Shown: piece by piece, positions 1,317-49,979 of the stretch
How positions within the stretch are numbered: position 1 is the first letter of the stretch
How the letters are laid out: each line of letters opens with the position of its first letter
NCBI GenBank assembly: GCA_019915015.1
Contig: JAHBBC010000014.1
Coordinates: 496,001-560,000 of the forward strand
DNA: 64,000 bases
Direction of reading: 5' to 3'
DNA from: Auriscalpium vulgare
Lineage: Eukaryota > Basidiomycota > Agaricomycetes > Russulales > Auriscalpiaceae
Made by a program: the position numbers and the translations under genes
Notes under the pieces: generated by a model
What the model saw: the letters and a program-made list of their open reading frames with translations, nothing else
Databases searched by the model: none
What the model was told of the DNA's origin: nothing

Positions 1317-1776
1317 CACCTGGTAGTACCTAGAAACAATAGTAAGTAGCTTACCGATGCGAACACTATCTGTAAGCTAACAGGCTAGGTTTGTCTTGTT
1401 TACAGTGACCCGCTGGGTTCCCCAGCGAGGCCCTCCCGTTTAGGAAGGGCCCGCTTACATGATCCCTGGCCCCAGCGGGTACTGCCCCCTCCGCCCCGCG
1501 TCCCTTTCGGCATTGCGGCACAGGGTCCCGTCCCGAGCCCCGCGTCCCGCCCGCCGCCGGCACTTGCCGCCCGCCGTTCCCGCGCCTCGCCGCCGCCGCC
1601 CACAATGACGACGAGGCATTCCCGCGTCCCCCTTGCATGTATCCCCACAATGTATATATGTATGGAATCGTACGAACAATGGGAATACAATGGTGCTCTT
1701 TGTTTTGTATTTGACTGAGGTACTGCTGTTCTATTGCGTCAGCGGAGTACGTACGGTCACGTGCTGTACGACTTGG
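1317..1776 (+). repeat. Left terminal inverted repeat of giant element
   Basis: It pairs with 49522-49979 in inverse orientation. It contains a GC-rich block (about 1430-1620) and a TATA-like TATATATG near 1650 that could serve the KDZ gene. Open frames inside it (for example 1366-1690 on the minus strand) are compositional and have partners in the other arm. Confidence 0.75.
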
Positions 1777-1815
1777 CGATCAACGCAACGCGCGCCTGTC
1801 CCCTTGCACACAGTC

Positions 1816-4457
1816 ATGGCTCCAGCTACCAGCAACCCGCAGCCCAGGAAGCCCAAGCGTCCTAATCTGAAGGCCACCTCTCCCATGTCCGCGAGTTCTC
1901 GGCCGGTTCACTCTTCCAGGGACAAGTGCCCACCATCAAGACGAAGAAGAGGAACATGACCGCAATTAGGAAGGATCAGGACCTCCAGCGGGCAGCCAGG
2001 AAGGCTGACGAGAATCGTGCGTCAAGCTTGCTTGAATTGTTCCAGTACTAACTCATCTTTGACAGGACTCATGGGTGCCTTCCGACAACGTCTTGCAGAG
2101 GCGGAAATCGAGACGGGCCGCGCTGCAGATCTCAGCGCTCTGCCTTGGGAGGACAGCATACCATTCAATCGAGATGCGGACGACTTCTGGTTTAACGTCG
2201 ATGACGACGACGAGCCCGATTCGTGTGCTGTCGGCCCCGAGGATGCTGCGATACACAGAGCGCGGGTTCAGGCGGTAGTGAGGTGCGTCTTCGTCCACTG
2301 GCCTTTGCTCTTGGTCTAACAGATCCTTTCAGCTTATATGGTGGTCGCATGCGCGGGCCAGACACACGATCGAGGGCTCAGCGCCGTGCAATCACCTATC
2401 GCAAGTGGCAGTCCCTCGCCCCTCGACTGCTTGATGCCCTGCTTCTCTGGCGGCACGGAGATCGCAGCCCTTCGCCAGGGAATGTTACATATCATACATT
2501 CACCATCCAGGTGATTGGCCTTTCAGGTAAGCTCACTGTGCTGCCTTCTTAGCTATTGGCACGCTCATTGTTCATGCCAACAGAATATTCCCCTTGACGA
2601 GAAATCACACAAGCACTGGATGAAGAGGCGAACATTGCTTTGGTTCGACAGGGCCTCCTCGGTGCGTCTCCCTTTCTCCCAACCCTTGCGTTCTCCCTCG
2701 ACCTCCTCGAATTCTACTACTGCCTTCGTCGTCAACATCCCTCTGTCGGGACACAGGGCTTTGCGAAGGTAATATCAGCATTCCACAACGTAAGTTTCGT
2801 TAATCTGCCTGTAAGCCATAGTGTTTATTTGACATGCACAGGCTCTGTACTGCCCAAAACTGCAGGAGAAGCTCGCTGCCGCCTTCGACGTATATGTCGA
2901 CCTCAAGGAACGTCTCCAGAAGAAGACAGACGTCGCACTCAACCGGGTGGGCAAAAACTGGCGGGCGCTGAACGGCTGCCCTTGCTGCGGCTTCAAGGTG
3001 CGTTTCTTGGCCTCGAGTTCATGGGAGTATTGGTGAAGCTTGACCCACAGCAACACGACAAGCCCATGCTCGTACCTGCCCGACTGCATGCCATGGATGG
3101 CAACAACTTACAAAAGCGGCTACAAGGCGTCGGTCATACGGACGAGCGTGAGTTTTTCAGTGACTACTTCATCCCACCCGGGCAAGTCGACACGTTCGCG
3201 GACGAGGTCAAGGGCACGCGTCGCACAGCCCCGGCGACCGGCCCGCCAGTCCCGGACTCTGCCAACGAAGACTCAGACAGCCTGCCCACCTCAAACCAGC
3301 CAGCCACCAAGTGCACGGACAGCTGGCAGGCCGCGAATGCGTCCGCTATGGGCAAGAGCGTCACCCAGGTCTTTGAACAGACCGGTATCTTCCTAACGAC
3401 TTGCCGACATGGGATTGTCGAGTTCGTGGAGGAGATGATCAAGAGTGGGGAACTGTGAGCATTTGCTGTCCGTCACTTTCGCCCATGCTAACCTTCATGT
3501 AGGGCCAAGTATGCTCTGGCATCTTTGGATGCAATCATGAAGACATACGGCGCCGACCAAGGCGTTGGCTACGACATCGGCTGCTCCATGGACTCAACAG
3601 TCCGCTCGACGTCTCTGAGCGAGAGAGCTGCAGCACAGCGACTTCAGCTCCTTGTTAATGCATTACATGGCTATGCTCACAACCGCGCCTGTCAGCTCAA
3701 ATTCCACCCGCTGTATAGGTTCGGGATTGGCATCGAGGACCTGGAGACATGTGAGCGCATATTCTCATGGCTCAACATCGTCGCTCGTAACATCCGCCAC
3801 ACGTCTCTCTACCACTGGCGACTCTTCCTTCATATATGCCTCAAGCAATGGGACAAAGACCGATACGTAAACCTCAGTAAGTGCTGAACCATGCCTCCTC
3901 CTGTGCTATCTTAATCAGCTAGGCTGATTTAAAGGCAAATCCTTGCTCGACAACTACCGACAGTCCCTCGCCACGATTCAGGAGTACGAGTACGAGCTGA
4001 CCGCGTTCCAGAAGCTGACAGGCTTTGCCAAAGACGACTTCGAACGATGGCTTATCGAAGAGGCCGAGTACCTCGAGAAGGCGCAAGATGAGCCAGAGGA
4101 GGACCTGCAGCAAGTTGCGTATGTTGAGAACCTCCTTTCTCTACAGAAGGCCCAGTACGTTCTGCCATTTCTGCTCTCATCTCAGTTAGCCTAACCATAC
4201 CTTCAGGGAAAAGTACGGCAGCATCACCACTGTCGAGTTCCAGACCTACACACCAGCCGACTTTGCCAGCGGCGTCAACCTTCGGCCTGCTGCGCTAAGG
4301 GCGAGGGAGCTCGAACGGCGCGCTGCGCAACGCAAGCTGGAGATTGCAGAGAACGTCGTCAGCGACTTGGAGCGCCGCCTAGGCATTGAAGACCGCTGGA
4401 CCACGACCACGCCTGCGTTCATCGTTGCTCGAGAAGCCATGGACAACAGGCGTCCCT
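1816..4457 (+). pseudogene. KDZ transposase, 5' part (interrupted)
   Basis: This is the N-terminal and catalytic part of a Kyakuja-Dileera-Zisupton transposase, the cut-and-paste enzyme presumed to move the host element. The start at 1816 (MAPATSN) opens a basic, Lys/Arg-rich N-terminus. Further exons encode RMRGPDTRSRAQRR and ALVRQGLLGASPF (about 2350-2750), the cysteine pair CPCCGF (about 2978), ETGIFLTTCRHG-type sequence (about 3380), GYDIGC with the first catalytic Asp (3573), LHGYAHNRACQL (about 3660) and DLETCERIFS with the acidic residue (about 3738). Small GT-AG introns separate the exons. Coding runs to RRP at 4456, where a foldback element begins; the C-terminal part resumes at 19981. 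The gene is therefore split by 15.5 kb and presumably dead. Family assignment rests on recalled motifs and is strong. Confidence 0.85.
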
Positions 4458-5150
4458 GTAGGTTAATAAGTATTAGTACCGGTAATTACCGGTCCATCCA
4501 TTTTTATTACAGACCGGTAACAAATAGATTATGTAAGCGACTTACGAAACGAGTCGGGGGTAAAAAATGCTGCGATCCTATTGGTATTGGATACAGAAAA
4601 ATCGGATAAAATCGGCTAAAATAGTGAAAAAATTCAGCTCGCAGCGGTTCCCACGGGTACGGGATGTAAAAGAATCATTTTAAATGGTTACTGGTACTAC
4701 GATTAGCTGCCCGTAGGGCTTGGAAAAATAGGGACAAATAGAGACAAATTCGGAATATATATGGGAGCATCACGTGCAAGTCAATATCCGCTTCCACGCG
4801 TCAAAATATTCCCACGGTCCCAAAAAATGTAATTTTTAATCATTTGCGCTGGTATATAATTCTTTCTGTAGACCCTGGGAAACCCCTTTGACAACAATAC
4901 AGTACATGTATGATGTAGACTTACATATAGACATATATACAAGGTGTTCTAAGCCCAGTCTATTGGCCTGCGAGCTGGATGGAACCACAAACCAGAGAGT
5001 GTTGGATAAGGAATATCCTGCAGTCATGATCTTCTTTACCTAAGGTACCAAAGTTTGTACACAGATAGCTCTTAATACTTTAAGACTCTAAGTATTTTTT
5101 TCCTGACCCAAGCCCCCCTTCAATTCTTCTCAAACACAATTTCTTTGGTA
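4458..5150 (+). repeat. Foldback outer arm, left
   Basis: It is the inverse partner of 19294-19980 and almost identical to it. It ends GGTA, the base at which the inner arm starts and at which the Helitron junction falls on the other side. Confidence 0.85.
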
Positions 5151-5508
5151 TTTATGCTATTGAAATAGTACTGATACACACATTTTGACTACCTTTGTAT
5201 ACATTTGGCATGATATGACTGCTGTAGATGCCTAGTCAAAGTTAGCCTATTCTCTACAATTATATTCCATATTTAACATATTATTCTTTGAAGACATTGG
5301 TAGGCTGCATTCAACATATATATATTCATTATTTATATGTTTTGGCCCAAAAGAATGGAGTGTGCCTAATAGCTCTCCAGGATTTGATCACTAAAATCCC
5401 CAATTATTTCAGAGCACTCACAGACCATGCCCCACCAACTCCTATAAGTATTGAGATCATACAAAGACTTAGTAGATATCACTATACTTCCACTCTGATA
5501 CAGCCTCT
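5151..5508 (+). repeat. Foldback inner arm, left
   Basis: It pairs inversely with 5679-6036. The two arms encode mirror-image short frames (5288-5590 plus strand and 5606-5959 minus strand) with almost the same peptide, which is expected of a palindrome and not evidence of a gene. Confidence 0.85.
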
Positions 5509-5678
5509 ACCTGTACTAGTACTGTCCTTGTCCCAGATGCATGTGCAAAGCAAATGGTCCTTTCTTTTTCCACTAAACTGTGACTTGTGATATGAACTTG
5601 GTTGATCATAAGCCTATGCTAACTGAGAACCAAGCCATCCATATGTACTTGTACAAGCCTGGGACCATTCTATATCTT

Positions 5679-6036
5679 AGAGGCTGTGTCAGAGTGGAAG
5701 TACAGTAATATCTACTAAGTCTTTGTATGATCTCAATACTTATAGGAGTTGGTGGGGCATGGTCTGTGAGTGCTCTGAAATAATTGGGGATTTTAGTGAT
5801 CAAATCCTGGAGAGCTATTAGGCACACTCCATTCTCTTGGGCCAAAACATATAAATAATGAATATATATATGTTGAATGCAGCCTACCAATGTCTTCAAA
5901 GAATAATATGTTAAATATGGAATATAATTGTAGAGAATAGGCTCACTTTGACTAGGCATCTACAGCAGTCATATCATGCCAAATGTATACAAAGGTAGTC
6001 AAAATGTGTGTATCAGTACTATTTCAATAGCATAAA
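5679..6036 (-). repeat. Foldback inner arm, right
   Basis: It is the inverse partner of 5151-5508, ending CAATAGCATAAA. Symmetry predicts TACC next, but that sequence occurs only at 19294, after the Helitron. Confidence 0.85.
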
Positions 6037-7330
6037 TTACGATTCCCTGAGGTACGAAGTAGGATCGTTTACTAATGGGACCTTTTCAGCCGATCCGTGA
6101 AACGCTCAGAATGCTCGCACCCGGTCTGTTCCGGTATTTTGATTAGATCCGAGCTACACTTACTTATCTGATCTTATCTACCATCTAGCAACTTCAGCCT
6201 GGCAACCTGCCGTCGACGGTTGCTGCGAGTCGAGCGCAGCCCCTCGAAGCGGCGCCGGTGCTCTCAGAATATCCTACCGGTAAGCCCTACAGATTCCTAG
6301 CTATTCATTCGACGATGCCGATGGTGCAGGGTCCGCAGCTGTCCGCAGTGACTGTGACGGTTGTGTCACACGCGCGTCACAGTTGAACTCGACGCGCGTC
6401 GCCTGCGTCGGTCGCGCCCACCTCCTCCTACAGCCACATCCCTCGCCGACCGCCGCCTCGTCACGTCCCTCACACCCACTGCCAGCCTGCAACCGGCACC
6501 CGCAGCCTACGCCTACCGGCGCCCACAGCCTACGCGCAGCACCTAAGCACCCGCGCACCCGCTCAACAAGTGCCAGCGCATCAACATGCGCTCATTCGCG
6601 GGCCCCACGTCACTGCGCTCCGCGCGTGCGAGTTAGAGGTCGGAGAGGGGAGATGGCAGCACAGAGAATAGCCAGGAGTAGCCCTGGAGGCCTCTGGTGA
6701 GTAGTATCATTTTGCGGGGCGGCATCTTGCTCATGCATTCCATCAGCTATCACCATCGCTCCCTCCTGCCATCGGGCACCCGCCACCAACCTCGCCCATC
6801 GCCATCTGTTCTCGCGCGCAGCCGCCAGCTGTCCCCCGCCGACACAGCCCGTCCTTGCATGCCTGTCCCTCCCCACATCATCTCGCCGATCTCGCCGCTG
6901 TCCACTCGCATCCCCGTGTTCACCCCGCAAGCCGACGTCCTCGCCCTCGCCACGCAATCCCCGTTCTCACCACATGCTCGTCAACGCCACGCATGCCGAC
7001 GACACGACACCCCCTCCGCTGCGCATGCCGACTACACCCCCTCACTCCTGCCGCCGCCGCCGCCGCCGTCACCCTTACGCTACCACCGCCTCCCTCATCG
7101 ACTCGTCGTCCACGTCCACACGCCAATGCCGCCAGGAGCCTCGTTTACACGACGCCGCCGCCTGCGCCTTCGCACAGACGCTGTCACCGTGCGCTACCGA
7201 CCCCGTCGCTTACCTTACCCACGCGCCGCCGCCGATCTTCACTTTCGCGTAGCATCCTCCGGCCCTCGTTGCATATCAACAGCACATGTATAGCTAGTAC
7301 CATATAGAATAGTAATATAAACAATGCATG
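6037..7330. other. 5' part of Helitron, GC-rich tract, no gene
   Basis: After the AT-rich first 150 bases, about 6180-7290 is GC-rich with CG-rich low-complexity runs such as GCCGCCGCCGCC. It gives long overlapping frames on both strands rich in Arg, Pro, Ala and Ser. None has a domain, a consistent splice pattern or a preferred strand. It may be a captured promoter or CpG-rich genomic fragment. Confidence 0.4.
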
Positions 7331-7818
7331 AACTTTGCCAACACCAGGTGTACACTGTCTCCGAGCAAGGCGGATGCCAGCTCACCCAATCAGGCACCCG
7401 TGATTGCGTGAGTCAGAGTCGCTGGCGACTTTGTCGTCCCCAACTTGTGCACGCACACATCGCTTTCACCCTGCCACACGACACAACGTTCTTATTCCAC
7501 ATGGCTCTGTACCATGCCACGGTCTACAAGACTGTCACAACGGTATGTGATTCAACTTCTTATGTACAACGCGCGTCGTCACCAACAATTGCACACATGA
7601 AGATTTCCTTGCGAGCTATTATCCTTGTACGAGACGTAGCCCCTCTCCTGTCATTGCAGCCACTAACGGTATGGTGCTGCAACGGGGGGACAAAATGGCT
7701 TACACTTGTAAGCCTATTTGTTGGCCTACATCTGCGCCTCTACTAATGATCTTACAGATGTTCGTCGAGCTCGCCCGTATGAGTTCGTACTCTGCCATCA
7801 CATGCCAGATAATTACTG

Positions 7819-8200
7819 ATGGCACATCCAGCCCTCGCGTGCACCGCAGCCGTTCCGGTATACCGGCCGAGCGCGCACAGCACAATCGGGCTGGTCGGTC
7901 AGGCGCTCGACCTTGCAATCAACATCTCTGCGACGGCCGCGCGTACGAACGTCGAGTCCGGCACACTCTTTGCCGCACTGAGGTCTATCACCACGCTTGT
8001 GCTGCGCCTCCAGCACAGCGCTGTCACGCTTACAGGCATGGATGTCTGCACACAGCTCGAGGTACGTCTCAGCTTATTCTCATTAATTTCTATGCACGGC
8101 TGACTGATGACGACATGTCAGGTGCTTACGCCGCTGCTCATCATTGTGTGCGTCAGGCTCGGGCTCATCCCTAGCAGCTTGCCCAAGGCGTACAAGACGT
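7819..8200 (+). pseudogene. Captured membrane-protein gene fragment
   Basis: Two exons joined by a clean 60 bp intron (8062-8121, GTACGT...TCAG) encode RTNVESGTLFAALRS ... DVCTQLE and then VLTPLLIIVCVRLGLIP. This is the last-helices pattern of a large agaricomycete family of multi-pass membrane proteins of unknown function (VESGALY ... PTLIIVRVGLG in typical members, from recall). Upstream frames from about 7500 may be further decayed exons. There is no intact gene. The retained intron means the piece was picked up as DNA, which fits Helitron gene capture. Confidence 0.5.
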
Positions 8201-8221
8201 ATGTCGACATGGCTCTATGCC

Positions 8222-8445
8222 ATATGCCCAACGCGGCGTCCAAAGGGACAATATTGCCCAAAGTGGCGTCCAAAGGGACAATGTTGCCCAAAGTGGTGTC
8301 CAGAGGGACAATTCTGTCCAAAGTGACATTATCTGAAATGCTGCCCAAAGTGACAATACATAAAGTGATGTCCAAAGCGACGATACATAAAGTGATTTCC
8401 AAAGTGATGGTATATAAAGTGATCTTCAAATTGGCAGCCAATCGT
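8222..8445 (+). repeat. Minisatellite with ~30 bp unit
   Basis: Tandem units of the type GCGTCCAAAGGGACAATGTT plus GCCCAAAGT degrade rightward into AAAGTGAT and ATACATAAAGTG variants. The frames through it (repeated SKGTILPKV-like peptide) only reflect the repeat. It directly follows the membrane-gene fragment. Confidence 0.65.
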
Positions 8446-8654
8446 AAATTGTGCGCACTACATCCTTCGAGGCAGACATTTGCATATGTAATGCAAATTG
8501 CCATGACGCTTCCATTGACTCTCTTCTCCTTAGCTATGTGGTATATATGCGGACAAGCATCCAGTGATTGCGGCAGCTCTGAGCACCACGCAGTATGCCA
8601 GGTAGGCGGTGGTTATAAAGTCGTTACATGGACTGGAGCAGAATTGAATACTTT

Positions 8655-9250
8655 ACGATTACTCTTAATCGTTTTTTTCTCCAACCAGTCAGGCCAAAAA
8701 GTGCCCGTCAGGAAAGTCGCTTTAGGAAATGGTCTCACACGGTCAAGTCGCGTCGTTCCACCTGCCAAATTCAGTAATTCTTAGCTAAGCAGCTTCCGTC
8801 CAATGCTTTTCCACATCCTCGCTCCAAAAGACACTCGTGTCTGCGAGTATTTTGCGTTTTGCAAGCTAACTAACACTGATATGCTCATGATTCAAATTGT
8901 TCTGTGATCAGAAAAAGAGGCCTTAGAGTTTCCATTTTTGGTAGAAAGTTCCCACGGTTGATGCAGAGAAAGATGACGTAGTTTTAGAGGGCATTCTACC
9001 AATTGATCCGGTTTGCTACGTCATTTTTCTCTACTCCGGCTATTACAGTACCCGGGCCTAATATTTTTACTATTAAAAATGCGCACATAGAGGGAATTGA
9101 ACTCACAGCATGCAGTTTATGAGTTACATAACATAGTCTAAGAGCAGTAACCACTAGACTAGAAGGCTATACTCATTGAACAGCTGTGGATAGTCTGTAT
9201 CAACCTTCTATCCCCTCTTACCCTACAATACACTTTGCTCTTTTTATCAA
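8655..9250 (-). mobile_element. tRNA-derived SINE-like element, copy 1
   Basis: Read on the minus strand, the head has an A-box-like TAGTCTAGTGGTTA (about 9160) and a B-box-like GAGTTCAATTCCC (about 9097). These are followed by a body with an internal inverted repeat (GAGAAAAATGACGTAG ... CTACGTCATCTTTCTC) and a tail AACGATTAAGAGTAATCGTA. The body aligns with 47500-48030, and the tail region also with 49190-49372. The tRNA-like head does not fold into a convincing tRNA, so this is not annotated as a tRNA gene. SINE classification is inferred from the pol III boxes and the 5'-truncated third copy. Confidence 0.6.
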
Positions 9251-9439
9251 ATTCTTGCCTTTTCCCTGATACAATATACACATATTATATATTGTCAGAA
9301 AGCTACAATAAATGCACACACAATGGTTAGGGTACTGGAGTCTGCAGGACTTGTGATGTATTAGCCAGTGCATATTTCCCTGTGTGTAGACCAAGATCTA
9401 CCAAGTGCATTCACGCTGATGATATTCCTTGTTCCGCTG

Positions 9440-10240
9440 ATGGACACCACCAGGTAGGGCAGTAAACAGCAGAGTCGACCAGATCCCTAGAGCGCTACCG
9501 AGGTGTTGATGTGTGTGCGAGCGAGCGTCAGGAGTCCCGGAGTAAGCAACGACCATCTCCGATCAAACCTATGGCGTTCCGATTGAGGGCGCGACAGTGA
9601 CAAGATGAGCGACGCAGGAAGACTGCAACACGACTGCAATCAATGACTCGGGCAAAGGCAACAAGGATGGAACAAGATGGGAGCGATGAGACAGGAAGCG
9701 AGAACAAAGGCTAAGACGATGGCTGAGGCTAAGGCGCCAGAGCAGTCAACCGGTGTTGACCGCTATATGATACGAAGGCGACAAGAGTGCACAAGTGAAA
9801 TGTGCTGGGAGCGATGAGGGTATCCGACAACTATTTATATGTTGTGACAAATACAGTGCGTGTCCAATCAAGTAAGTACAGAGACATCAGAAAGACAAAG
9901 GGAAAGATAGCAGCATCATATCAAATGGTACGGACAATGGACAATGCGGGGGAGTCATGCGACAGTCAGACAACGAGGAACGAGGCAGGGGACGATGTCG
10001 AGCGAGTGATCTGCACTGTCAAAGGACAACGGAAACAGCACGGGAAATGATCCGCTCTGTTGTTGACTGTGGGAAACAGCCTCGGGGAGCATGGGAACAG
10101 ACAAGGCGTGCCATATTGAGCATGATAGCGGTGGTCCGATAATGGTGACACAAGGCTGCGTCTTCCGATTGTGAATGTTCGGGAGGCAATGCTTCCAACA
10201 TGTGGAGTGGCTGGGTTGCGAGTCAATCACAAGGCGCTCA
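9440..10240 (-). repeat. LTR-like repeat, promoter part, inverted copy
   Basis: On the minus strand this matches 34480-35345, including a TATA-box region (TATAAATAGT in both), GTTTCCCACAGTC and the end AGCGCTCTAGGGATCTGG. It resembles the U3-R-U5 end of an LTR. No protein is encoded. It lies inside the Helitron and in inverse orientation to the next repeat block. Confidence 0.55.
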
Positions 10241-10609
10241 TGAATATGAGATGGTAGCATGTGTCGATAGATGCTAGGATGTGTTGGAGGGGAGCGGGCA
10301 TGTCGGGAGCGCTGAGTCAGAGGGTGTTGGAGCGGTCGGGACAGTGGTGCGGACAATGGGCAACTGGGGCAGTACTCGGATGGTGTGGGAGCACCAGCAC
10401 TGTGTAGCGCCGGGCGTGGCTGTTGTGCGACCAGGCTGTGCAAGTCTAATGCAAATCTGATGCGCCGTGACAGGCATGGGAAATGTTGTGCTGGCTAGCG
10501 TATGGCGACTGGGCATGCGGTCGGGTGCTTAGTGCGAGTAGCATGGGAGTCGGCAGAGTGTTCTAATTGTGGCACGGGAAGGCCTAGGTAATGTGACCAA
10601 GGACTTGGT

Positions 10610-11560: not shown

Positions 11561-11664
11561 TCACTTTCCTGCACGCGGAGCCAGAGCCATTAACCCCGAG
11601 TATTATATCTCCAACATATTCAAAAAGGACATAACTACACCAGGCAGTCAGTTGTATGTTGGAT

Positions 11665-11737
11665 GGCCAAGCCCCCCTCCCCCCTAAATGATTAAGAGTA
11701 ATTGTACTGCCATGCGTGCATTGGCCCATTAACCCCA
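11665..11737 (+). repeat. Hairpin module, copy 2, upstream of Helitron genes
   Basis: It has the same order as at 1125-1207: GGCCAAGCCCC, ATGATTAAGAGTAATTGTA, hairpin GCCATGC-GT-GCATTGGC, CCCCAAG, then T. It ends 20 bp before the Rep start codon, so it may double as the promoter or 5' leader of the Helitron genes. Confidence 0.45.
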
Positions 11738-11757
11738 AGTATGTTATTGAAGCTCAA

Positions 11758-23650: not shown

Positions 23651-23651
23651 C

Positions 23652-34262: not shown

Positions 34263-34265
34263 ATA

Positions 34266-38591: not shown

Positions 38592-41500
38592 TCATCCGTT
38601 CTTCGCGCCAAGGGAAAGAATAAGGATGTCATTGCTACCGTGTCTGCAAGCACCGCAAGCGCTGATGTTGGGCCATCGTCTGGAGCAATCAGCACGCGCC
38701 TGGCCAATTCCTTCGTCAAACGCGGTAGGGACGACAACTCAAAGGCGTATACCAAATTCAAGGAGAAAATCCTTGCGCTTGACGACATGGCCGAGTTCTG
38801 TCTAGACGATGTTCGGAAGGTCCGATGCTCTCGATGCAACAAGTACATGCTTATGACTGGGGCGTATCACACCAAGGCATTCAAACAGCACCAGAAAGTT
38901 TGCAAGGGCACAATGCGATCACATACACTGGGCCACATCTGGGCATCAACCTCATCGACGCAGGCCCCGCGCTCCGAGAATGATAGATCGTCCTTGTTTC
39001 GGACTTCGCGCAGCAAAATACGCTCGTGTGCGTCAATATTTTGAGCGCACACCATACGGCGGGGGCGGCGGGCCTTCCCTCGCCGATTTGGCGTTAGAGT
39101 TGTATTCGGCACCAGATTATCGTTCGTTGGATAAGGCCAGAAAGCAAGTAGTCGACACGGAGCAAGAGCATCGGTGGCAGTGGAAGAACTATCGGTCGCC
39201 TCCCCTTCATGTCCTTGCGACAGATTGTCTTCGCACTGTAAGGGTGCCGGAAGAGTCAACTGAGGATGTTACTTGTGTCAACTGCCTCGCTCTGCTGCAT
39301 GTCCACGTATTCCAGAATGCGACTCGCAAGCCAGTCCCCGAGCCTAAGAATCGCCGCTTCACCCCAATCATGCTCAGAAAGACGACATACAGGCCCTCCA
39401 TCGATATGCTCTTACTCATCCCGACCTTGCACCTCTTCTGGAGGCATACGAAGATGTCAGTAGCTTCAAGTTCATAGTATCCCCACGTTACAGCTTCTGA
39501 TCATTGTCTGCACAGAACCCTCATAGTGCATGCCTAGTCTTCGCAAGAGGCGTTATCGAGGGCAAGCATGGCAATTCCTTGTTTGTCGCCTTGATGAACG
39601 ATCTCGTCAAGAAGAAAGATTAGAAGAACGAGGTGTCCCTTTGAACGGCATGCGATATTCAGCCATGACATTGGAGTGGGCGCAAATTATCCACGTCTTA
39701 AGCCCGCGAGCATATGAATCCATGATGAATGTGCTACCCGTACCCGCAGAACGGACACTCCAGTCAGTGTTTACAAGATTGCATTGATACAATTGACTGA
39801 TAAATGACCCGAAGGAAACGTCGTGCGCACGAAGTGCAGTTTCCCATCGGCATCACAGAGGCAACATTTGAATTTATCTACGAACGGCTGAAATCATTGG
39901 ACTACCTTGTGGGTCCCGTTGGCCTCGCATGTGATGATACGAAGCTGCTAGAGTCTTTGAGGCCTCACTGGGACCCAATACGAAAGTGCTACGTGCTTCT
40001 AGGGAGTCCTGGGCGATCCCGTCGTCGTGAGCGACATCAACACACTCGATGCCCTCATCCGCACCAGGAAGATCGAGAAGGCTAAGAAGGTATGAGTTCT
40101 ACGAATACTTCGGAGGCATGCAGCTCACCGACACATGCCAGATACGCGTATGGACCCTCCAGATCCCTCTTCCCGGCGTTCCGACTATCGTCGTTGCGGC
40201 GCTCCCTATCTCAGAGTCAAACTCGGCGGAGCAACTGTTCGTCCACCTGGAATTAATATTGAATGGCCTTCTCTCCCGCAAGATCAACGTTGTATCCTAC
40301 GCCGCAGACGGCACGGCTGTCGAGCGCTCCCTTCAACGTCTCCTGGTCGCTCACGCCGTTGCGTACATTGACTACACCCTCAGGCACCCTATTCGCTCAC
40401 ATCGTGACATCAACCTCCACATTCCTCTCATCGGCGCAGGGCGACAGCCTGTCGCACTCATTCAAGATTCGAACCATGGGCGCAAGACGTACCGGAACAA
40501 CGCATTCTCAGGTGCCCGGATACTTACTTTGGGCAGCTATACGACGTCGTACAGCCACTTCCGCCTTGCAGCAATTGAAGCAACAGGGACATTGTTTCGG
40601 AGGGATGTCGAGAAACTTGATCGACAAGACGACAATGCTGCGACCCGTCTCTTCTCCGGTCATACGCTAGCATGGTTCACCAACGAGCATCGTGAAATGG
40701 TCGGCTCGATTATCTACCTCTTTGTGTTTGGAGAGCTCGTGGATGCATACCAGAATCGATCGATCCCAATTATCGAACGTGTTCGCATGGTGCTGCGTGC
40801 GCACTTCTTCATGGAAATGTGGACCGACTTCATGGACATCGCGGGCTACCGAAAAGCTCAACACTTCATATCTCCCGAGGCACGCGACATCACAAACTTC
40901 CTAGTCGTTGGTTTCCTTCAGTTGGTGATCATCTATCGGGACCACCTCGACGGCAGATACCCATTGCTGCCCTGGCTTCTATCAACCGAAGTCTGTGAGC
41001 ATGTCTTCGGCATTTGTCGACAGCTTGTGAAGGACTTCACCTTGCAAGACTTCTATCATATGATTCCGAAGCTCTCAGTCCGCTTGCGCGAGCATCTCTT
41101 CCTTGCAAAGACATCTGAGGGCAAGGAAAGAGCGAATGGATACAATCATACCTATACCGACAATCGACATCTCGACCTCCATGCCCTCTCCACATTCCTT
41201 CTGATCACGACATTGAGCAAGCAACACAACAGGCCCATTCGGAGGCAGCGAATCTGTGGGACGCTCTCGTACTAGACCCGGATTTTCTGGACAAATTGCA
41301 GAATCAAGCTCACCGTGTTCGCGCATCCCATCGTTGTCGAGTTGGTATTCGCAGGAGGCTTGGGATGCAATCTATGGCCAGTCCGATTCCGAAGACGAGG
41401 GTCCTGAGATGGACGAAGACGAGCCCGAGATGCTCCAGATTGAAAATGGGTTGAAGAAGGCAGAGAATGCAGACGGAGTTGGTGCGGTCTTCGACCAGCA

Positions 41501-42751
41501 GTTGAACGATTTGACTTGCGCAGCAGCTGCCTTATGCGTCCAGAGCACTGTCGACATGTTCGTGTTTTGTCCTCCTCTCACCGCCGATAGATCTTACAGA
41601 GTCTAACCCTCACATTACTAGACTGCAATTGCCTGAAGACACAGCGGATGCAACACGCAAAGACGCTGCACATATAGGGAAGATCCTCGCCCAGTCGCTC
41701 CCTGCTGTGTCCGACCCCGACGAGCGCAGGACCTTCCAGGACACAGTGATCTCTGCTGAATTCGATCTCGAACAGCTCGCAGTCATCCGCCGGTCGCATC
41801 ATACCAGACAGGCTGAGAAAGGTGTCCGAACAAAGGCCTTCAAGTCCTCGGAAGATCTACCACCTTCCTCTGATAACGGTCCACCGCCCAGTCAACGCTC
41901 TCCGAGAAAAAACGCCTTCTGCAGTTGGTCAAGGATGTTCTCAAGCGTCAAGAAGAGCGCGGTGTTACAGAGCGCGGTGTTACCACGGCGCGGGTCGGTC
42001 GATGCGCTGGCGGCAGCCAGCTGCGGGCGGTCGAGACGGAGCAATCAACGGCGAAGAAGCTGTTGCTCCTGCACCAGGGACGGCTGCAAACGCGGCTGAG
42101 GTCGCTGCAAATGCATCGTATCAGGTGCGTCTGCTAGTGTTGTATGAGTGCACATACATGGTATTGACGTCCGCCAGGCTGAACGGAGGCGAGCAGCGAT
42201 CTTCGCAAAGCATCACGTCCCCAAGGTCGCACACTCGGCCAATGTCACGCCGCTCAAACACCTCTACGCTGCTCACACTGGCATGCCGCCTCTTATGGCT
42301 TGGTTCTTGTTGATGAGGCAATCTGCCTTGCAGAAGGTGCGTCGTAATCTTCAACATGACCGGCATGCGCTGATGGCTGGTTAGTCCTGACCATGTACGA
42401 GAAGTCGGCCGGTAAGAACGGCAAACATGGTTGGGCTTCGGACACGTCTCGCATCACCGCTCTTTCTTACATCGCTGTGAGACTGTTCAAGCCGGTCCGA
42501 CACAACCAATTCTCCCTCGCCGATCCTAGCAAGATCCCTCGGTTCGCCTTCCTGAAACCGTCCTACTTCCTGTATGCCCTCGACCATCCCTCCAAACCTC
42601 GGGCTCAACACTAGCTTTGGTAAAATCTGATGGCGCGTGCTATGTCGCCCTCAAGCAGAACGTCGCGAATATCGCTCGTGCTATCAAGGAGCTTAGTGGG
42701 AGGGTCAAGGCGGGTCTTGAACAGGCGGGTGACGATGAACCAGATGAATAG
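38592..42751 (+). CDS. Transposase-like protein with P/THAP9-style motifs
   Basis: The multi-exon region opens with a zinc-finger-like segment [19 protein letters not shown] (38832; Cys2-His-Cys). [19 protein letters not shown] and [16 protein letters not shown] (39170-39320) follow. Then come [12 protein letters not shown] (39920), a 40 bp intron near 40090-40129, [14 protein letters not shown] (Asp at 40307), [20 protein letters not shown] (Asp at 40466), [16 protein letters not shown] (40617) and [16 protein letters not shown] (40979, acidic). DxxHxxKxxRN is the second-Asp motif of P/THAP9 transposases. The C-terminus is [13 protein letters not shown] (42392) and ends at 42751. I recall this as a common, unnamed Agaricomycete family. 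Exon joins outside the 40049-41275 core are not all resolved and frameshifts are possible. Confidence 0.6.
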
Positions 42752-42990
42752 GTCAGTTTGACAGGCCTCTGCGCATCCGTAGTACATCCCCTCCTGCCTG
42801 CACGCAAAGCGGAGCTTTTTACAATAAACTACGATTTTTTTGAAGCTATGATCCTATCCGTGGTAGCTACGGACCCCAAACGGAGGTCTGAGGGGCGAAT
42901 GGTAGCTGGAAGGGGTCGCGAGCCGCAAAAAAAAATGGTAGTTGACCCCGTTTGGCGGATCATACCCCTGGCATGAGTTACGGGGGTCCT

Positions 42991-42998
42991 TGTCTAGC
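42991..42998. repeat. Target-site duplication of P-like transposon, right
   Basis: TGTCTAGC is identical to 36135-36142; the interrupted repeat continues with CCAGCTCTCGAG as in the copy near 11106. Confidence 0.85.
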
Positions 42999-43250
42999 CC
43001 AGCTCTCGAGTTTGCGCCACATTCCTTCGATCCCGATCGTTCTGCGGTCGGACCAGCGCTCCGATTATCCCTCCACAGTTCCAACCATTGCACACGCAGT
43101 ACCGGAGCATTCTTCCGACTGTTCGACGAGTCGCAAGATTGCAACACTCACCTGCGACTCCCTTGCAAGTCGGAGTGCATTCCATCACTCGCCACACCTC
43201 CATTGTCTCCTTTTCTGGTCGTATTGTCTTGTTCAACGTACTTCTTCAGT
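42999..43250 (+). repeat. LTR-like repeat, continuation right of P-like insertion
   Basis: It is the direct continuation of 35690-36134, aligning with about 11106-11340 (AGCTCTCGAG ... GTCTTGTTC). It passes into GC-rich sequence at about 43245. Confidence 0.65.
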
Positions 43251-44885
43251 CCCGTGCCAGATCGGTCGGGGCTCGTATGTGCACCCCGCCCGGTCCTGGC
43301 GGGATCCCGCCCGTACCGCGCGGGCTCAGCGCGCCCAGCGATGCTGGAGCAGCCGGAGCCCGTGCGCAGCGAGGGAGACCGCCAGGACCGGGCGGGTGCC
43401 GCCCGGTCTGTGCGCCGCTCAGGAACCCCGCTACCATCGCCGCCGCCGTCGGTGCGCCTGGTCTGTGCGGGCTCGTTGCCCGCACCGCGCGCACCTCATT
43501 GCCCGCACCGCGCGCCCCTCGCCGCCCGCACCGCGCGCCCCTTCGTTGCCCACAGCGCGCGCCCCTGCTCGCCGCCTTCCCTGCGCGCCCTCGTCGCCCG
43601 CACCGTGCACCCCTCGTCGCCCGCACCGTGCACCCCTCGTCGCCCACACCGCGCGCCCCAGCTCGTCACCCTCGCTGCGCGCCTCGCGTTGCGAACGTTG
43701 TCGCCCTTGCCACACGCCCTCGTCGCCGTCGTCGTGCACCCCGCTCCTCGCCTGCGTCGCGTCGCCTGCTGCATGCGCGGCGTCCTGGTTGCACGTCTAT
43801 GTGCGCTACCCTCGCTGCGCACCATGCGCGTTGCCCTCGTTGTGAGCTCACGCGCGGCGTCCTTGCTGCGTGTCGTCCTCGCTGTGTGTTAGCCTAGCTG
43901 CGCGTCGTTCTCGTCGTCCTCGCCGCGCGCCCTGCATGTCGTCCTCGCTGCGCAGCCAGGAGGCACCTGGTGTGGCGCCATACAAGACTGCGCAAGCCGG
44001 TCTTGCAGTTGTCGGGGGCCGGACGGCCGGGCGTGCGGGTAGCGGAAGGCGAGTGAAGCAGTGAAAGGCGTCAGCGACGAGCGTCCCAAGGCAGATTCCC
44101 ACGAGTGCAATCAACAGAACCACGGGACCACGTGATTCTCCGGCAGCCTCAACGCAGCAAAGTCCACTTTCTTCCGACTACCACCTGTCCCTCCTGCCCT
44201 CAACCCCAGTACCTTCCCCACACCCTTGCACCCTCAACATCATCTCACCAGTACCCGGGTCAGCTGCGCGACAAGTTGCCGATGACAAGGACCGCCAAGG
44301 CACACGACCAGACGCACGACAAAGACGACTGCCAGTTGTGTACGAGGAGGGTGGCGACGAGGGGCGGTGCGCGGCGAGTCGGAGAGCAGGAGCGTGCGGC
44401 GAGGGCGGCGTGCAGGGACGCGCAGGGAGGGCGACGAAGATGACACGCAGCAAAAACGACGGGCGGGCGCGCGCAGCGAGGGCAACGCGCATGGGCGCAC
44501 AGCGAGGACAGGGAGCAGGGGTGTGCATGGACGGCAACGCGCAGGGCCGCGCACTGATTGCGAGGAGGAGGGCTAGGCATAGAGTCCGACACGCAAGGCG
44601 CGTGTGGCGAGTGCGACGAGCAGAACGCGTCCGCGTGGACCAGGCGGGCCCGCACAGGCAGGGCGCCGACGGCGGCGGCCCATGCCAGCGGTAGGGTACC
44701 AGGCGGCGGCGCTCAGACCGGGCGGCATGCGCCCGGTCCTGGCGGGGTCCCTCCGAGTCGATGCGCGCGCTCCAGCTGCTCCAGCATCGCTGGGCGCGCT
44801 GAGCCCGCATGGTACGGGCGGGATCCCGCCAGGACCGGGCGGAGTGCACATACGAGCCCCGCCCGGTCTGGCACGGGACTGAAGT
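43245..44885. repeat. GC-rich block with ~195 bp inverted repeat ends
   Basis: 43245-43440 and 44690-44885 are inverse copies (both contain GTGCCAGA/CGGGGCTCGTATGTGCA and GCGCCCAGCGATGCTGGAGC). Between them are GC-rich direct and inverted repeats. Frames of up to 316 codons on either strand read as Arg/Ala/Pro/Ser-rich low complexity and contradict one another, so I call no gene. The segment around 43950-44110 recurs inversely at 46300-46500. It is probably a rearranged internal region of the LTR-like element. Confidence 0.5.
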
Positions 44886-45870
44886 CCCTCGTTCAACATT
44901 GTAGGATGTCTCTCCCACACTTCTTGACAGCGCAGATCGTTTTCCATGCGCTTGCACTGCCCTTCTGACAGCGCTGATCACTTGCTCTACATTGTCCTCT
45001 ACAGCCTCGCAGACCTTCTGATATGTCCTATTGACTCTCCTCCATTGTCTGTACCATGTGCGACTTGCGCACCATTGTTTGCTTTTGTTCCGACTGTTTA
45101 CTTTGTTCCGACTTTATTCTCGATCGTACTCGTACTGTAGCGGTCGCATCCATACTGCAATACAGATTCGGTTCCCCCCGCACGGTTCAGATCTCATTCG
45201 ACGCCATAAAGCCTCGTCTCTATCGTATAGTTAGCTCGAGGCTAGCTCTGTCGCCTTTGCCTTTGCCTTTGCCTTTGTCGTCATCGTCCCGCACTCAGCT
45301 TATCGTTCTCCTCGCTCTCATCTTGTTCCATCGTCGTCCCATTAGCCGTTGCCCTCGCACTTCGTCGCTCCAACCTTCTTGCGACATCGGAGATTGCAGT
45401 CGCGTTCCGCTCGTCCCGCAGCGATCGCAACATCGATTGGCGTGCTCGCACCACTCATTCCTATCTTCCGACCACCGCCCCCGCTCCTCCGACCATCCCC
45501 ACGCCTCTGCGTTGTTGCCTGCACGACTCATCGTCGCTCCAACCGTCTTGCGACCTCGGAGATCGCAGTCTTGACTCTGCCGTCTCGCAGCGGTCGCAGC
45601 CTTGATCGCACCACTCGCACCACTTGTCCACACATTCCGACCATCGCATCTGCGCCTCCGACCCCTCATCGACGACTCTCCAACCGATCACGCATTCCGA
45701 CCGGCGCATCCGATTGCACACCTCCCCACACTCGTCGGAGACGCACTCCGATTGTCTTCGGGACCCTGACACTCACTCGCACACATCACGGTACCCTCAC
45801 CAGCGCTCTAGGGATCTGGTATCTGACACATTACCACCCTACTACCTGTGGGTGCCCATCAACGCGCACG
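44886..45870 (+). repeat. LTR-like repeat, promoter and end part
   Basis: It matches the 3' half of 10610-11560, starting TTCAACATTGTAGGATGTCT, and ends GCTCTAGGGATCTGGTATC followed by CCACCCTACTACCTGTGGG. It contains the pentuple TTTGCC tract at about 45250. No protein is encoded. Confidence 0.55.
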
Positions 45871-46530
45871 CCCCTCGTCGCCCGCAGCGCGCGCACCCTA
45901 TCGCTGCCGCCATGCGCCCGTCGGCGCCGTTGTCGTCCACCCCTCGTTGCAGTCGTCGCCCGTGCCCCTCGCCGCCGCACGACCCTGTCGCCGTCGTGGT
46001 CTGCCCCTGCTCCTTGCCTGTGTTGCGTGCCATTCTGCGCCCCTGCACGTCGCCCTTGCTGTGTGCTGCTCCTCGTTGTTGCTCTCATTGTACGCCCCTG
46101 GCGGTTGTCTTGGTCGTGCACCCTGTCGTCGCGCGCCTTTAACATCCTCGTTGTTGGCGATTTGTTGCATAGCTGAGCTGGGCACTGGTAGTGTGAGGGG
46201 GAGGCGCGAGGGTGGGGGAAGGCGCAGGGGTTGGCAGCAGGTGGAGGCATGTGGTACAAGTCCGCTGCGTTGAACAGAGCCGCACAGTCACACGGTCATG
46301 CGTGTTTGTTGATTGCCCGTCATGGGAATCAGCCTTTGGCTACAGGAGGCTACAGCTCCAGTTTGTCAGATTCTCTCCCTCCGTCACTTGCCCTCCTGCG
46401 TCGCTTCCGCATCCTCATGCCCCCCTGACAATCGTGATTTTTGCGCAGTCTTGTATGGCGCCACACCAGGTGCCTCCTGGCTGTGCAGCGAGGATGACAC
46501 ACATGGGCGTGCAGTGTGACAAGGGTGACA
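45871..46530 (+). other. GC-rich LTR-element debris
   Basis: This repeats the pattern after an LTR-like end: GC-rich, low-complexity frames, then a segment (about 46300-46500) that is an inverse copy of about 43950-44110 (CAGTCTTGTATGGCGCCACA in both). No gene is supported. Confidence 0.45.
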
Positions 46531-46689
46531 CACAGTGAACACAACAAAGACGATGAGCACGACATGTAGGAACACTCAGCGAATACGACGAGGGCGAGGG
46601 CGAGGAGGGCGAGGGCGATGTGCAGGGGCGCACATTGGGACAACGAGCAGAGATTTGCGTGGAGGGTGACTGCACCCGTCTCTCGAGGC

Positions 46690-47125
46690 GAAAACCAGGT
46701 ACGCCGCCTCCCATCCCACCCCACACCCTCTACTGACCCCTGGCAGACTCCTCGCCAACACGCAGCTTCTTGACGTTCAAGTTCTCCGCGCTCAAGTCTG
46801 ACAGTGTTCCCACCGCGATGCTCGAGACTTTCGTCTCTGACAAGCGCATCCCGGGCACTGCTTCGCGCCCGAGCTCACCGCTGCCAACGCCCATGCCGGA
46901 CATTCCGCTCGCGTCGCCGTGCCCCGCTCTGCCGCCAAAGCGCGGCTCGTTGTTCGCTCAACGCATGGCACGCAGGGTTCTTGCGGGTGCGCAGGGTCCC
47001 TGCGGGGCGCAGGCGGCGGCGGCGTGGATGGTGTTTGGCCTGTCAGCTCCCGCGAGGACCTTGCGACATCTCGTGCGCTGCGCGCGAGCTCCAGCCGCTC
47101 CAGCAATGGCTGGGTGCACCTGAGC
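46690..47125 (+). pseudogene. Possible gene fragment, unknown
   Basis: After a splice-like CAG at 46745 the frame reads FLTFKFSALKSDSVPTAMLE, TFVSDKRIPGTASRPSSPLP and PALPPKRGSLFAQRMARR, then turns into GC-rich low complexity. It looks like a piece of a real, Ser/Pro-rich protein, but I cannot name it and there is no complete gene. Confidence 0.25.
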
Positions 47126-47499
47126 CCGCGGGGTGCATGGCGTGCGGGACTCCGCAGGGTCCCCGCAGAGTACACCGAGTGGGCTCGGAGGGTCCCTCAC
47201 GGAATTGAAGTAGTATGTGGATCAGAATTGTGTAAATGGTAGCCACCCACGTAGGAGGCATATCACTATGTTCGAAGCATATCAGCGGAGCAAGGTGTAT
47301 CAACATACCACTTTGCATATTGCTCACATAATCAAATGATCTGAACACAGGTGAGCAATATAAAAATGTCTCGTACTTTGCAAATGATCCAGACTCTGGG
47401 ATCCAGGCCATTGTGTTTACATTAATTTTACCTTTCTACAGATATATAATATGTATATATTGTATTGGGGAAAGGAAAAGAAAGTGATGAGAAGAGCAA
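47126..47499. other. AT-rich spacer, nothing recognised
   Basis: GC content drops at about 47210. The stretch has no credible frame, repeat or RNA gene that I can see. Confidence 0.5.
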
Positions 47500-48030
47500 A
47501 ATGTATTGTAGAGCAAGAGTCAAGATAAGGTTGTTATAGACTATACACAGCCTAACTATACCCACTGCACTGTAGTCTAATGGTTAATGCTCTTATATTG
47601 TATTGTGTAAGCAATGGGTTGTAGGTTCAATTCCCCCCCTTTGTACATTTTTAATAATATAGATATTCAGCCCGGGTATTGTAGTAGCCGGGTTAGAGAA
47701 GCATGACGTAGTAAACCGGCTCAACCACTCGAAAACTACGTCATGCTTCTCTACACCAGCCGTAGGAACTTTTTACCAAAAATAGAAATCCAGGAGCTTC
47801 TTTTTCTGATCATAGAACAATTGGAATTATATGCATACCTGCGCTAGTTAGCCTGGAAAACATAAAATACTCGCAGACACGAGCGTCTTTTGAAGCGCAA
47901 AGATGTGGAAAGACATTAGGCAGAAGCTACTTACCTAAGAATTATTGAGTTAGACAGGTGGGACAACGCAACTATCTATTTCCTTTTGTGACTTTCCTGA
48001 TGTGCACTTTTTGACCTGACTGGTTACCTT
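47500..48030 (+). mobile_element. tRNA-derived SINE-like element, copy 2
   Basis: The head has an A-box-like TAGTCTAATGGTTA (47574) and a B-box-like GGTTCAATTCC (47623). The internal inverted repeat GAGAAGCATGACGTAGT ... ACTACGTCATGCTTCTC (47695-47754) and the body ATACTCGCAGACACGAG are shared with copy 1. Similarity ends near CTGACTGGTTA, before the ATTAAGAGTAATCG tail, so the 3' end is missing or replaced. Confidence 0.6.
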
Positions 48031-48129
48031 GCTCGCCAAGGTCTCTCCCGCTCGAAATTGAATCAGGCACATTACATATTTGCGCGTGTTTGCCTCCCTC
48101 TCTCTGCCTGCCGCGCTGTATTTACTTCC

Positions 48130-48795
48130 CAGGCTCGTCCCCTCTACGTATCGTACCTAAGCTGCATACCACCATCCTTCGTCTCCTCACTGAAGCGCGA
48201 CAGCCTCTCATCCTTCTAATGTCAAATGCTGGTCCTGTGGCCTGAAAAAAGCTGCTCATTGAAATCCCGCAAGAGCTGTATCGTGTCACGACCGAAGCTT
48301 CGGGATAGCGCAACATAGATGTTGAAAAGGCTGAGGTCTGACCCTATCGGTGGAGAGGCGATGTCAACAATCACATATGGGATGGTCTGACCTTGAGATG
48401 GTAAGTCTGTAAATGCATATGCGGCCGTCAGAGGTAGTTGCCTGCGCTGCATGGTCGACGTCTTCTTCTTTTCTGACCGCCTGTCCTGCAGTGCGATTTG
48501 GGATGTCTTGCGGGCAGAAACAATCGGGACCACATATTCACTCAGGCCTTGCAGCTGGGGCAGCCGTGTTCGGTCCAGTGTTCGGTCCAGTTTGACGAGG
48601 ATGTAAGTATGCCAGTACGTGCCGCAAAGTGACGCGACTGTCAGCGCCGACATGCTCATCTTCCTCCTCATCTAGGAAAATGACATGGGTCGTTCCCCGC
48701 ACCCCATTTGCAATGCCAAGGTTTGCCTGTACATTGAGGGTCACCATCACCTTCATGCCGACCGCAATATCGACTCGATTGGGTAGCCTCGAGAC
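48130..48795 (-). pseudogene. Fragment of a second Helitron helicase
   Basis: Minus-strand frames read KVMVTLNVQANLGIANGVRG, then VVPIVSARKTSQIAL, LPLTAAYAFTDLPSQGQTI and SLFNIYVALSRSFGRDTI. These are the C-terminal motifs of PIF1-like helicases in Agaricomycete Helitrons. The two overlapping frames (48538-48756 and 48222-48671) show a frameshift, and nothing upstream is left. The sequence differs from the helicase at 14420-18622, so it comes from another Helitron family. Confidence 0.65.
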
Positions 48796-49189
48796 CTCTC
48801 GACGCCCTTACTTCCGCTCTTTACGACTCGCCACTGCTGGTCTTTCGCGCAGCTTCTCTCCCCTAAAGCTACGAGTCGTACAATGTTCCTCTCTCTAGTC
48901 ACACTTTTGTTTGTTTAGTGGCTCAGAAGCTGTGAAATCGAAGCCGAGACAATAGTTGCCTGCGCTTCTGCTTGCAGAACTCGATCCAGAGCACCAAGCG
49001 GCGTACTTAGTCTACATCAGATCGCTCGAGTGCTGCACTCATCCGTGCATATGCATCTGAGCAAGGTGACGGCCCCCGGGGTGCGTTTCGAGTTAGAGAA
49101 AGAAACGATTGAAAGTAGTTGTAACACAGGAAGCTTCTTTCATTCGACTGATTGAAGAAGTTAGAGCCAACAGCAAAACTACATGCAGT

Positions 49190-49372
49190 ACTAGTATTAT
49201 TTGAAGTGCAAAGAGCCTGCAACGCTTAGGGCAGGACCTGCTTAGCTAAGAATTACTGAAAAAGGCAGTTAGGACGGCGCGACTTGACCGTGGGATCTAT
49301 TTCCTAAAGCGACTTATAATGTGTTCGCATTTTGGCCTGACCTGTTGGAGAAAGAAACGATTAAGAGTAATC
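49190..49372 (+). mobile_element. SINE-like element, copy 3, 5'-truncated
   Basis: It contains CTTAGCTAAGAATTACTGAA, CGCGACTTGACCGTG and the tail GAAACGATTAAGAGTAATCG, as in copy 1. Only the 3' third is present, which fits target-primed reverse transcription of a truncated copy. Confidence 0.6.
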
Positions 49373-49480
49373 GTAACATGATATTATACTCATAGCACCA
49401 TACAGTACTTAGTTATCCAATGTGAGTGAGTATAAAAACGTCTGAGGGCGCTATAAGTACAGGGAATCCGCTTCAAAGTT

Positions 49481-49557
49481 CAAGTCGAACAACACGTGAC
49501 CGTACTTACTCCCTCGTGTTTCCAAGTTGAACAGCACGTGACCGTATTTACTCGCTG
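49481..49557 (+). repeat. ~42 bp tandem duplication inside right terminal repeat
   Basis: AAGTCGAACAACACGTGACC and AAGTTGAACAGCACGTGACC each precede GTA(C/T)TTACTC. The second copy pairs with the left terminal repeat; the first is extra. The shared CACGTGACC is an E-box-like word. Confidence 0.6.
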
Positions 49558-49979
49558 ACCCAATAGAACAGCAGTACCTCGGTGAAATACAAAAAAAGTA
49601 GCACCATTGTATTCTTCTCATCCACACGATTCCGTAGGTATATAAATTATGTGAATACGAGCAAGGGGGGCGCGGAAATGCCTCGTCGTCGTCGTGGGTG
49701 GCGGCAGCGAGGCGCGGGAACGGCAGGCGGCAAGTGCCGGCAGCGGGCGGGACGCGGGGCTCGGGACGGGACCCTGTGCCGCAATGCCGAACGGGACGAG
49801 GGACGGAGGGGCAGTACCCGCCGGGGCCAGGGATCATGTAAGCAGGCCCTTCCTAAACGGGAGGGCCTCGCTGGGGAACCCGGCGGGTCACTATAAACAA
49901 GACAAACCTAGCCTGTTAGCTTACAGATAGCGTTCGCATTGGTAAGCTACTTACTATTGTTTCTAGGTACTACCAGGTG
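49522..49979 (-). repeat. Right terminal inverted repeat of giant element
   Basis: It is the inverse partner of 1317-1776, ending GGTACTACCAGGTG. It contains a TATATAAATTA box near 49640. The 104-codon frame here is the GC-rich arm read through and is not a gene. Confidence 0.75.

What the first reader, a model, noticed from the sequence alone, without database searches (positions are those of the whole stretch)
1317..49979. A 48.7 kb KDZ-type giant transposon that accumulated other elements like a nest
Seen: inverted repeats of about 460 bp with identical termini (CACCTGGTAGTACC), an 8 bp flanking duplication matching 7 of 8 bases, and a KDZ transposase gene 40 bp inside the left end. Known: KDZ transposons can carry TET/JBP genes. 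Inferred: all cargo between the repeats once moved as a unit of about 14 kb and later grew to 48.7 kb by insertions. Elements of this size in basidiomycetes, with several unrelated cargo genes, are poorly described.
Basis: partly seen in the sequence, partly recalled or inferred. Interest (0 to 1): 0.9.

Follow-up and report, generated by a model that had tools for sequence, protein, structure and literature searches.

The report
Fungal transposon nest carrying hidden TET
A 48.7-kilobase stretch of a mushroom genome is one old DNA transposon, about 13 kilobases long, swollen by other transposons that landed in it, and its family carries a well-conserved gene for a TET-like DNA-modifying enzyme that standard domain searches miss.

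The parts
1309..1316 (.). left 8-bp target site duplication TGTACAGA
   Evidence: 7 of 8 match to the right copy; siblings 8 of 8 in six of seven
1317..1776 (+). left terminal inverted repeat, starts CACCTGGTAGTACCTA
1816..4460 (+). KDZ transposase gene, 5' part (CxC1 and KDZ domains, several introns), cut by insert A
4459..4460 (.). left TA target duplication of insert A
4461..19977 (.). nested insert A, 15,517 bp, terminal inverted repeats about 690 bp at 97% (GGTTAATAAG...CTTATTAACC); composite
   Evidence: KDZ reading frame is continuous without it
5150..6037 (.). fold-back element inside insert A (arms 360 bp, 99%)
11692..18622 (+). Helitron-type genes inside insert A (DUF6570, Helitron_like_N, PIF1 helicase)
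19978..19979 (.). right TA target duplication of insert A
19980..20658 (+). KDZ transposase gene, 3' part
21774..23810 (+). decayed remnant of cargo gene 2 (RNase H1 N-terminal / Cauli_VI repeats in siblings)
   Evidence: only short matches remain
24561..25256 (+). cargo gene 3, short protein of unassigned fold (conserved part 24765-25160)
25830..27635 (+). cargo gene 4, divergent TET/JBP-fold dioxygenase; exons 25830-26599, 26649-26889, 26947-27046, 27096-27635 (a short first exon upstream not placed); one in-frame stop at codon 304 of this model; last codons displaced by insert B
27636..32346 (+). nested insert B, 4,711 bp, about 43 copies of a 69-bp tandem unit, 3' hairpin, no target duplication beyond one ambiguous base
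32587..34262 (+). cargo gene 5, protein of unassigned fold (HMG-like only by eye)
34264..49376 (.). nested insert C, about 15.1 kb, composite with at least one further insertion; starts just after the stop codon of cargo gene 5
   Evidence: boundaries approximate, no target duplication seen by eye
48024..49093 (.). 1.07-kb element nested in insert C; the flanking pieces are contiguous at about 20 other places
49522..49979 (-). right terminal inverted repeat
49980..49987 (.). right 8-bp target site duplication CGTACAGA

Best explanation
1317-49979 is a single old copy of a cut-and-paste KDZ transposon family that makes 8-bp target duplications. Its unit was about 12-13 kb: KDZ transposase, RNase H1 N-terminal-domain protein, two proteins of unassigned fold, and a divergent TET/JBP-type dioxygenase, between inverted repeats that begin CACCT(G/A)GTAGT. 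Three mobile elements later inserted into it, and others into them, so it grew fourfold. It can no longer make its own transposase. In the live family the transposase binds the long inverted repeats and moves the unit (inferred from domain and ends). The dioxygenase most likely oxidises methylated bases on the element or its host so that silencing is relieved (inferred; active-site motif and selection shown, fold predicted, activity not shown).
For: Eight elements have paired convergent CACCT ends (16 of 18 pattern matches; reversed-pattern control 3 matches). Six have perfect 8-bp duplications and the window 7 of 8. KDZ and TET-core matches fall inside the ends of all eight. The sibling at C2:1673190 sits in a sequence whose uninterrupted form is window 27631-30136 (99% and 87% identical on its two sides), overlapping by exactly its 8-bp duplication, so an empty site is directly seen. 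Insert A: KDZ frame continuous without it, TA duplication. Insert B: without it the cargo gene ends ...LAQQLAQVK, exactly as in the A. vulgare homologue P0001; relatives of B interrupt sibling C15 at two places where sibling C28 is uninterrupted. Fold. Selection. KDZ linkage of the near TET group: 12 of 26 within 15 kb against 1.6 expected. The host has C5-methyltransferase matches at three places.
Confidence: 0.87

Rival explanations
1. The two end repeats belong to two different KDZ copies, and the space between is a chance accumulation of repeats, not one element.
For: The genome holds at least 168 KDZ matches, so two ends near each other are not impossible; one base of the duplication differs.
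Against: The two repeats are 90% identical to each other and at most 60% to any other family repeat over the whole length; the flanks match 7 of 8; the genes between run in the siblings' order from transposase to cargo gene 5.
Confidence: 0.05
2. The whole 48.7 kb is a functional giant cargo transposon that moves as one, with help from a sibling transposase.
For: Both ends are kept, and the outer 16 bases equal those of the sibling on C44.
Against: Its own transposase gene is cut by insert A; no second copy of the long form was found in this one genome; the inserted pieces exist elsewhere as separate repeats.
Confidence: 0.06
3. The dioxygenase gene is another kind of 2-oxoglutarate enzyme (prolyl hydroxylase or AlkB-like) and not TET-like in function.
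For: Some relatives give weak 2OG-FeII_Oxy_3 matches (best E 5.8e-4, below cut-off); sequence similarity to TET is very low.
Confidence: 0.1

Closest known systems
TET+ Kyakuja elements (KDZ), Kojima 2025, PMC12730594
   Same: KDZ transposase plus TET-like gene in one mobile unit in Agaricomycetes; ends CA..TG
   Different: Kyakuja are reported with 7-bp duplications and no inverted repeats and carry AG-type TET; here 8-bp duplications, inverted repeats of about 350 bp or more in most copies and a TET without the AG residues. The AG-type-linked KDZ of this genome has a CxC2 N-terminus, this one CxC1
TET+ Zisupton and Dileera elements (KDZ), Kojima 2025
   Same: 8-bp duplications are reported for both; Zisupton also with inverted repeats
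   Different: TET+ Zisupton is reported within Agaricomycotina from Auriculariales and Agaricales, TET+ Dileera from Pucciniales, not from Russulales; the transposase phylogeny could not be tested here
CcTet of Coprinopsis cinerea (PDB 8jkk, 7w5p, 7vpn)
   Same: closest solved fold; HxD...H...R active site
   Different: about 16% identity over 255 residues; positions of Gly331 and Asp337 hold Asn and Cys in all eight elements (placement by the hhalign alignment)
KDZ/TET/HMG elements of Iyer et al. 2014 (recalled, paper not held)
   Same: the general idea of KDZ transposons with a TET/JBP gene and helper proteins
   Different: whether this dioxygenase subfamily was in that study could not be checked; the HMG assignment of cargo gene 5 was not supported here
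Starship giant transposons (Pezizomycotina; search listings only)
   Same: size range and the first impression of a giant element with cargo
   Different: here the size comes from nested insertions and the transposase is KDZ; a tyrosine-recombinase captain was not searched for

Membership tests
KDZ transposons | KDZ transposase domain (PF18758) above the curated cut-off | tested here: met
   79.2 bits against 26.6 for one exon; whole domain 205 bits in the genome search
KDZ transposons | ends and target duplications of a mobile unit, with an empty site | tested here: met
   six perfect 8-bp duplications among seven siblings, window 7 of 8; empty site for the C2:1673190 sibling, not for the window copy itself
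Kyakuja (as described by Kojima 2025) | 7-bp duplications, CA..TG ends, no inverted repeats | tested here: not met
   ends are CA..TG, but duplications are 8 bp and inverted repeats of about 350 bp or more are present in most copies
Zisupton | 8-bp duplications with inverted repeats | tested here: met
   reference description in PMC12730594. 8 bp is also reported for Dileera, so this does not tell the two apart
Zisupton | transposase groups with Zisupton in a tree | not testable with these tools
   no named Zisupton reference sequence was at hand; only 22-28% identity to the CxC2-type KDZ of the same genome was measured
TET/JBP dioxygenases | double-stranded beta-helix of TET type | tested here: met
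TET/JBP dioxygenases | HxD...H metal triad and 2OG-binding Arg | tested here: met
   8 of 8 elements; H238 and R249 invariant in the 23-row alignment, H185 and D187 in 90% or more
TET/JBP dioxygenases | Pfam Tet_JBP (PF12851) above the curated cut-off | tested here: not met
   no hit at E<=1; relatives reach at most 28.7 bits against 34.9
AG-type transposon TET | Gly/Ser at CcTet 331 and Asp at 337 | tested here: not met
   Asn and Cys in 8 of 8 elements; Gly and Asp in 3 of 3 AG-type proteins of this genome
PE-type transposon TET | HxE in place of HxD | tested here: not met
   HxD in 8 of 8
PU-type transposon TET | residues of the Pucciniomycete type | not testable with these tools
   the residues are only in a figure that is not held
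Helitron (insert B) | 3' hairpin, no target duplication | tested here: inconclusive
   hairpin, and no duplication beyond one ambiguous base, in three insertions, but target A|C and ends differ from the classical TC...CTRR at A|T (recalled); no autonomous partner identified

The most novel reading that the evidence does not exclude
The cargo enzyme is a fourth type of transposon-borne TET/JBP dioxygenase, with its own active-site signature (HxD, Asn at +5, Cys at +11), invisible to the standard domain model and expanded to at least 68 catalytic-core loci in one mushroom genome. One branch is tied to an 8-bp-duplication KDZ lineage with long inverted repeats; the larger branch is not tied to KDZ. 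It may oxidise a different base or make a different product from CcTet, as part of a transposon's escape from silencing.
Probability: 0.45. Interest if true: 0.72.

Novelty: new variant of a known kind. Interest (0 to 1): 0.52.

Why it matters
It gives a clear worked case of how a seemingly giant fungal element can be a small transposon swollen by nested insertions, with sequence evidence for several of the steps. More important, it suggests that counts of transposon TET genes based on the Pfam model miss a large group in Russulales: 17 Tet_JBP matches (11 above the cut-off) against at least 68 core loci of the divergent group in this genome. If these enzymes act on DNA, the survey statement that Russulales carry only Kyakuja-type TET elements needs revision, and intact copies are at hand to test whether transposons use base oxidation to evade silencing.

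Tried and rejected
Searches for a Tet_JBP domain in the window by Pfam found none, which first suggested no TET cargo; the sibling comparison and fold overturned that. Pfam on cargo open frames and spliced proteins gave nothing useful apart from Cauli_VI in gene 2. Profile comparison with the AG group was too weak to count, and the profile found no TET chain in the PDB. The HMG reading of cargo gene 5 was not supported: model pLDDT 43.4 and no Foldseek match at E<=0.001. Ends of the AG-type elements were not reached, because the fetched 14-16 kb stretches are 99.9% identical almost throughout. No target duplication was seen for insert C. The Starship idea was dropped for lack of any positive sign, not by a test. 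Papers: PMC12730594 abstract, sections 4, 18, 23, 26, 34 and found passages; other papers only as search listings; Iyer 2014 not held and used from recall. That this TET group on an 8-bp KDZ element in Russulales is not in print rests only and the read parts of that paper.
Full report
WHAT WAS CHECKED. The ends are real. The left repeat (1317-1776) and right repeat (49522-49979) are 90% identical over 458-460 aligned bases, identical over the outer 39, and flanked by TGTACAGA and CGTACAGA, 7 of 8. The KDZ domain is unmistakable (PF18758, E 4.9e-22 on one exon; E 1.7e-59 for the whole domain).

HOST. The window is C14:496001-560000 of a 51.6-Mb genome. A flanking exon, 53405-54910 on the minus strand, encodes a chaperonin (GroL) that is 100% identical to that of Auriscalpium vulgare; the next species is 94%. 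The genome is therefore most likely A. vulgare, Russulales (for the lineage). This rests on one gene.

THE FAMILY. Searching the left repeat found three relatives, and the pattern CACCTGGTAGTNCCTA with one mismatch allowed found 18 matches, 16 of which pair into eight elements; the reversed pattern gave 3 matches. Lengths: 11,545 (C28), 11,588 (C2, 1.67 Mb), 11,752 (C2, 0.36 Mb), 11,752 (C23), 11,994 (C44), 19,700 (C24), 27,326 (C15) and 48,663 (the window). Duplications are 8 of 8 in six, 7 of 8 in the window and 2 of 8 in C24. Two pairs of copies are nearly identical yet have different duplications: the two 11,752-bp copies (end repeats identical to two decimals) and C28 with C15 (99.3-99.8%), so the family moved recently. 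All eight hold a KDZ match and a core of the same cargo enzyme, and the seven others align to C28 in one order. For the C2:1673190 sibling the unoccupied target is visible in the window itself: window 27631-27986 and 27979-30136 flank it (99% and 87% identical; the second stretch runs into a tandem array) and overlap by exactly 8 bases.

THE NEST. Against the siblings, three insertions account for nearly all the extra length. Insert A, 4461-19977, lies in the transposase gene with a TA duplication; read without it, the transposase frame continues. Its end repeat has 40 further matches outside the window, two of them short, including eleven plus/minus pairs about 2 kb long, and it holds a Helitron-type replication and helicase gene pair. 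Insert B, 27636-32346, carries about 43 copies of a 69-bp unit and displaces the last codons of the dioxygenase gene; read without it, the protein ends LAQQLAQVK, exactly as in the A. vulgare homologue P0001, an independent pre-insertion witness at the protein level. Two relatives of B interrupt the C15 sibling where C28 is uninterrupted, which also explains C15's length. Insert C, about 34264-49376, begins just after the stop codon of cargo gene 5. Its right part, 47390-48026 plus 49092-49380, is contiguous at about 20 other places at 96-99%, and the 1.07 kb between is a further element found elsewhere at 94-99%. Part of its left side, from 34495 on, matches 39 other listed places at 90-98% (40 of 253 candidates were scored), several in same-strand pairs about 10.7 kb apart, as long terminal repeats would be. 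Together A, B and C make about 35.3 kb, leaving a core of about 13.3 kb, 1.3-1.8 kb more than the short siblings; that excess lies mostly between 20658 and 24765 and was not explained. Ages are only hinted at: parts of C are 98-99% identical to other copies, A's two ends are 97% identical to each other but at most 85% to other copies, and the KDZ copy's own ends differ by 10%.

NUMBERS IN THE GENOME. The protein search gave 95 matches, with 79 of 201 candidates scored, so counts are lower bounds. Rows for the N-terminal part were dropped; 68 core loci remained, 26 in the near group (53% identity or more) and 42 in the far group (41-49%). Against 108 KDZ loci collapsed by hand from the listed rows (not all of its 168 matches were listed), 12 of 26 near loci lie within 15 kb of a KDZ (1.6 expected), 4 of 42 far loci (2.6 expected) and 8 of 16 Tet_JBP loci (1.0 expected) (one of the 17 Tet_JBP rows was counted in the far group; near-identical copies are not independent). 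The other cargo: gene 2 carries RNase H1 N-terminal (Cauli_VI) repeats, 21.1 bits against a cut-off of 21 for a hand-joined peptide and 19.1 and 20.7 for two single exons; genes 3 and 5 have no assigned fold, and gene 5 has homologues only in A. vulgare among those found (4). DNA methyltransferase matches at three places make methylated DNA in this host plausible.

MECHANISM. Shown: target duplications and an empty site for the family, common cargo, the nest, active-site conservation and purifying selection. Predicted: the TET-type fold. Inferred: the transposase acts on the CACCT ends; the dioxygenase oxidises a methylated base and protects the element from silencing, as proposed in print for other transposon TETs; the window copy is beyond autonomous movement.

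VERDICT. The observation and the nest reading are right. As a giant transposon it is ordinary: a decayed 13-kb element inflated by others. The new part is the hidden TET type and its carrier, a variant of a known kind.

Noticed in passing
window 27636-32346; sibling C15 (loci L013-L016): Elements with a 3' hairpin (GATTCC..GGAATC AGAA), no target duplication beyond one ambiguous base and large tandem arrays (69-bp units here; units spaced 469 bp in the 11.3-kb copy in C15) insert between A and C in three of three cases with a known empty site; they look like non-autonomous rolling-circle elements that carry satellites.
   Followed up: partly
L017-L026 (C9, C13, C8, C14): AG-type Tet_JBP and KDZ genes lie in 14-16 kb stretches that are 99.9% identical among five places; the ends of this repeat were not reached.
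   Followed up: partly
42 loci at 41-49% identity, e.g. L027, L029, L030, L034, L035: A second, larger branch of the divergent TET group is not enriched near KDZ genes (4 of 42 within 15 kb, 2.6 expected); its carrier is unknown.
   Followed up: partly
window 37337-38422 and 40031-41272: Long open frames in insert C without Pfam match; the first looks by eye like a Ulp1-type protease, the second might be a transposase.
   Followed up: no
window 421-1204, 8653-11742, 34264-36137: The left flank of the element and parts of inserts A and C share a repeat family with ends around ATTACTCTTAATC.
   Followed up: no
C17:407788 and C18:975126 (L047-L050): Two single CACCTGGTAGTCCCTA ends without a partner, possibly broken or partly deleted copies of the family.
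   Followed up: no
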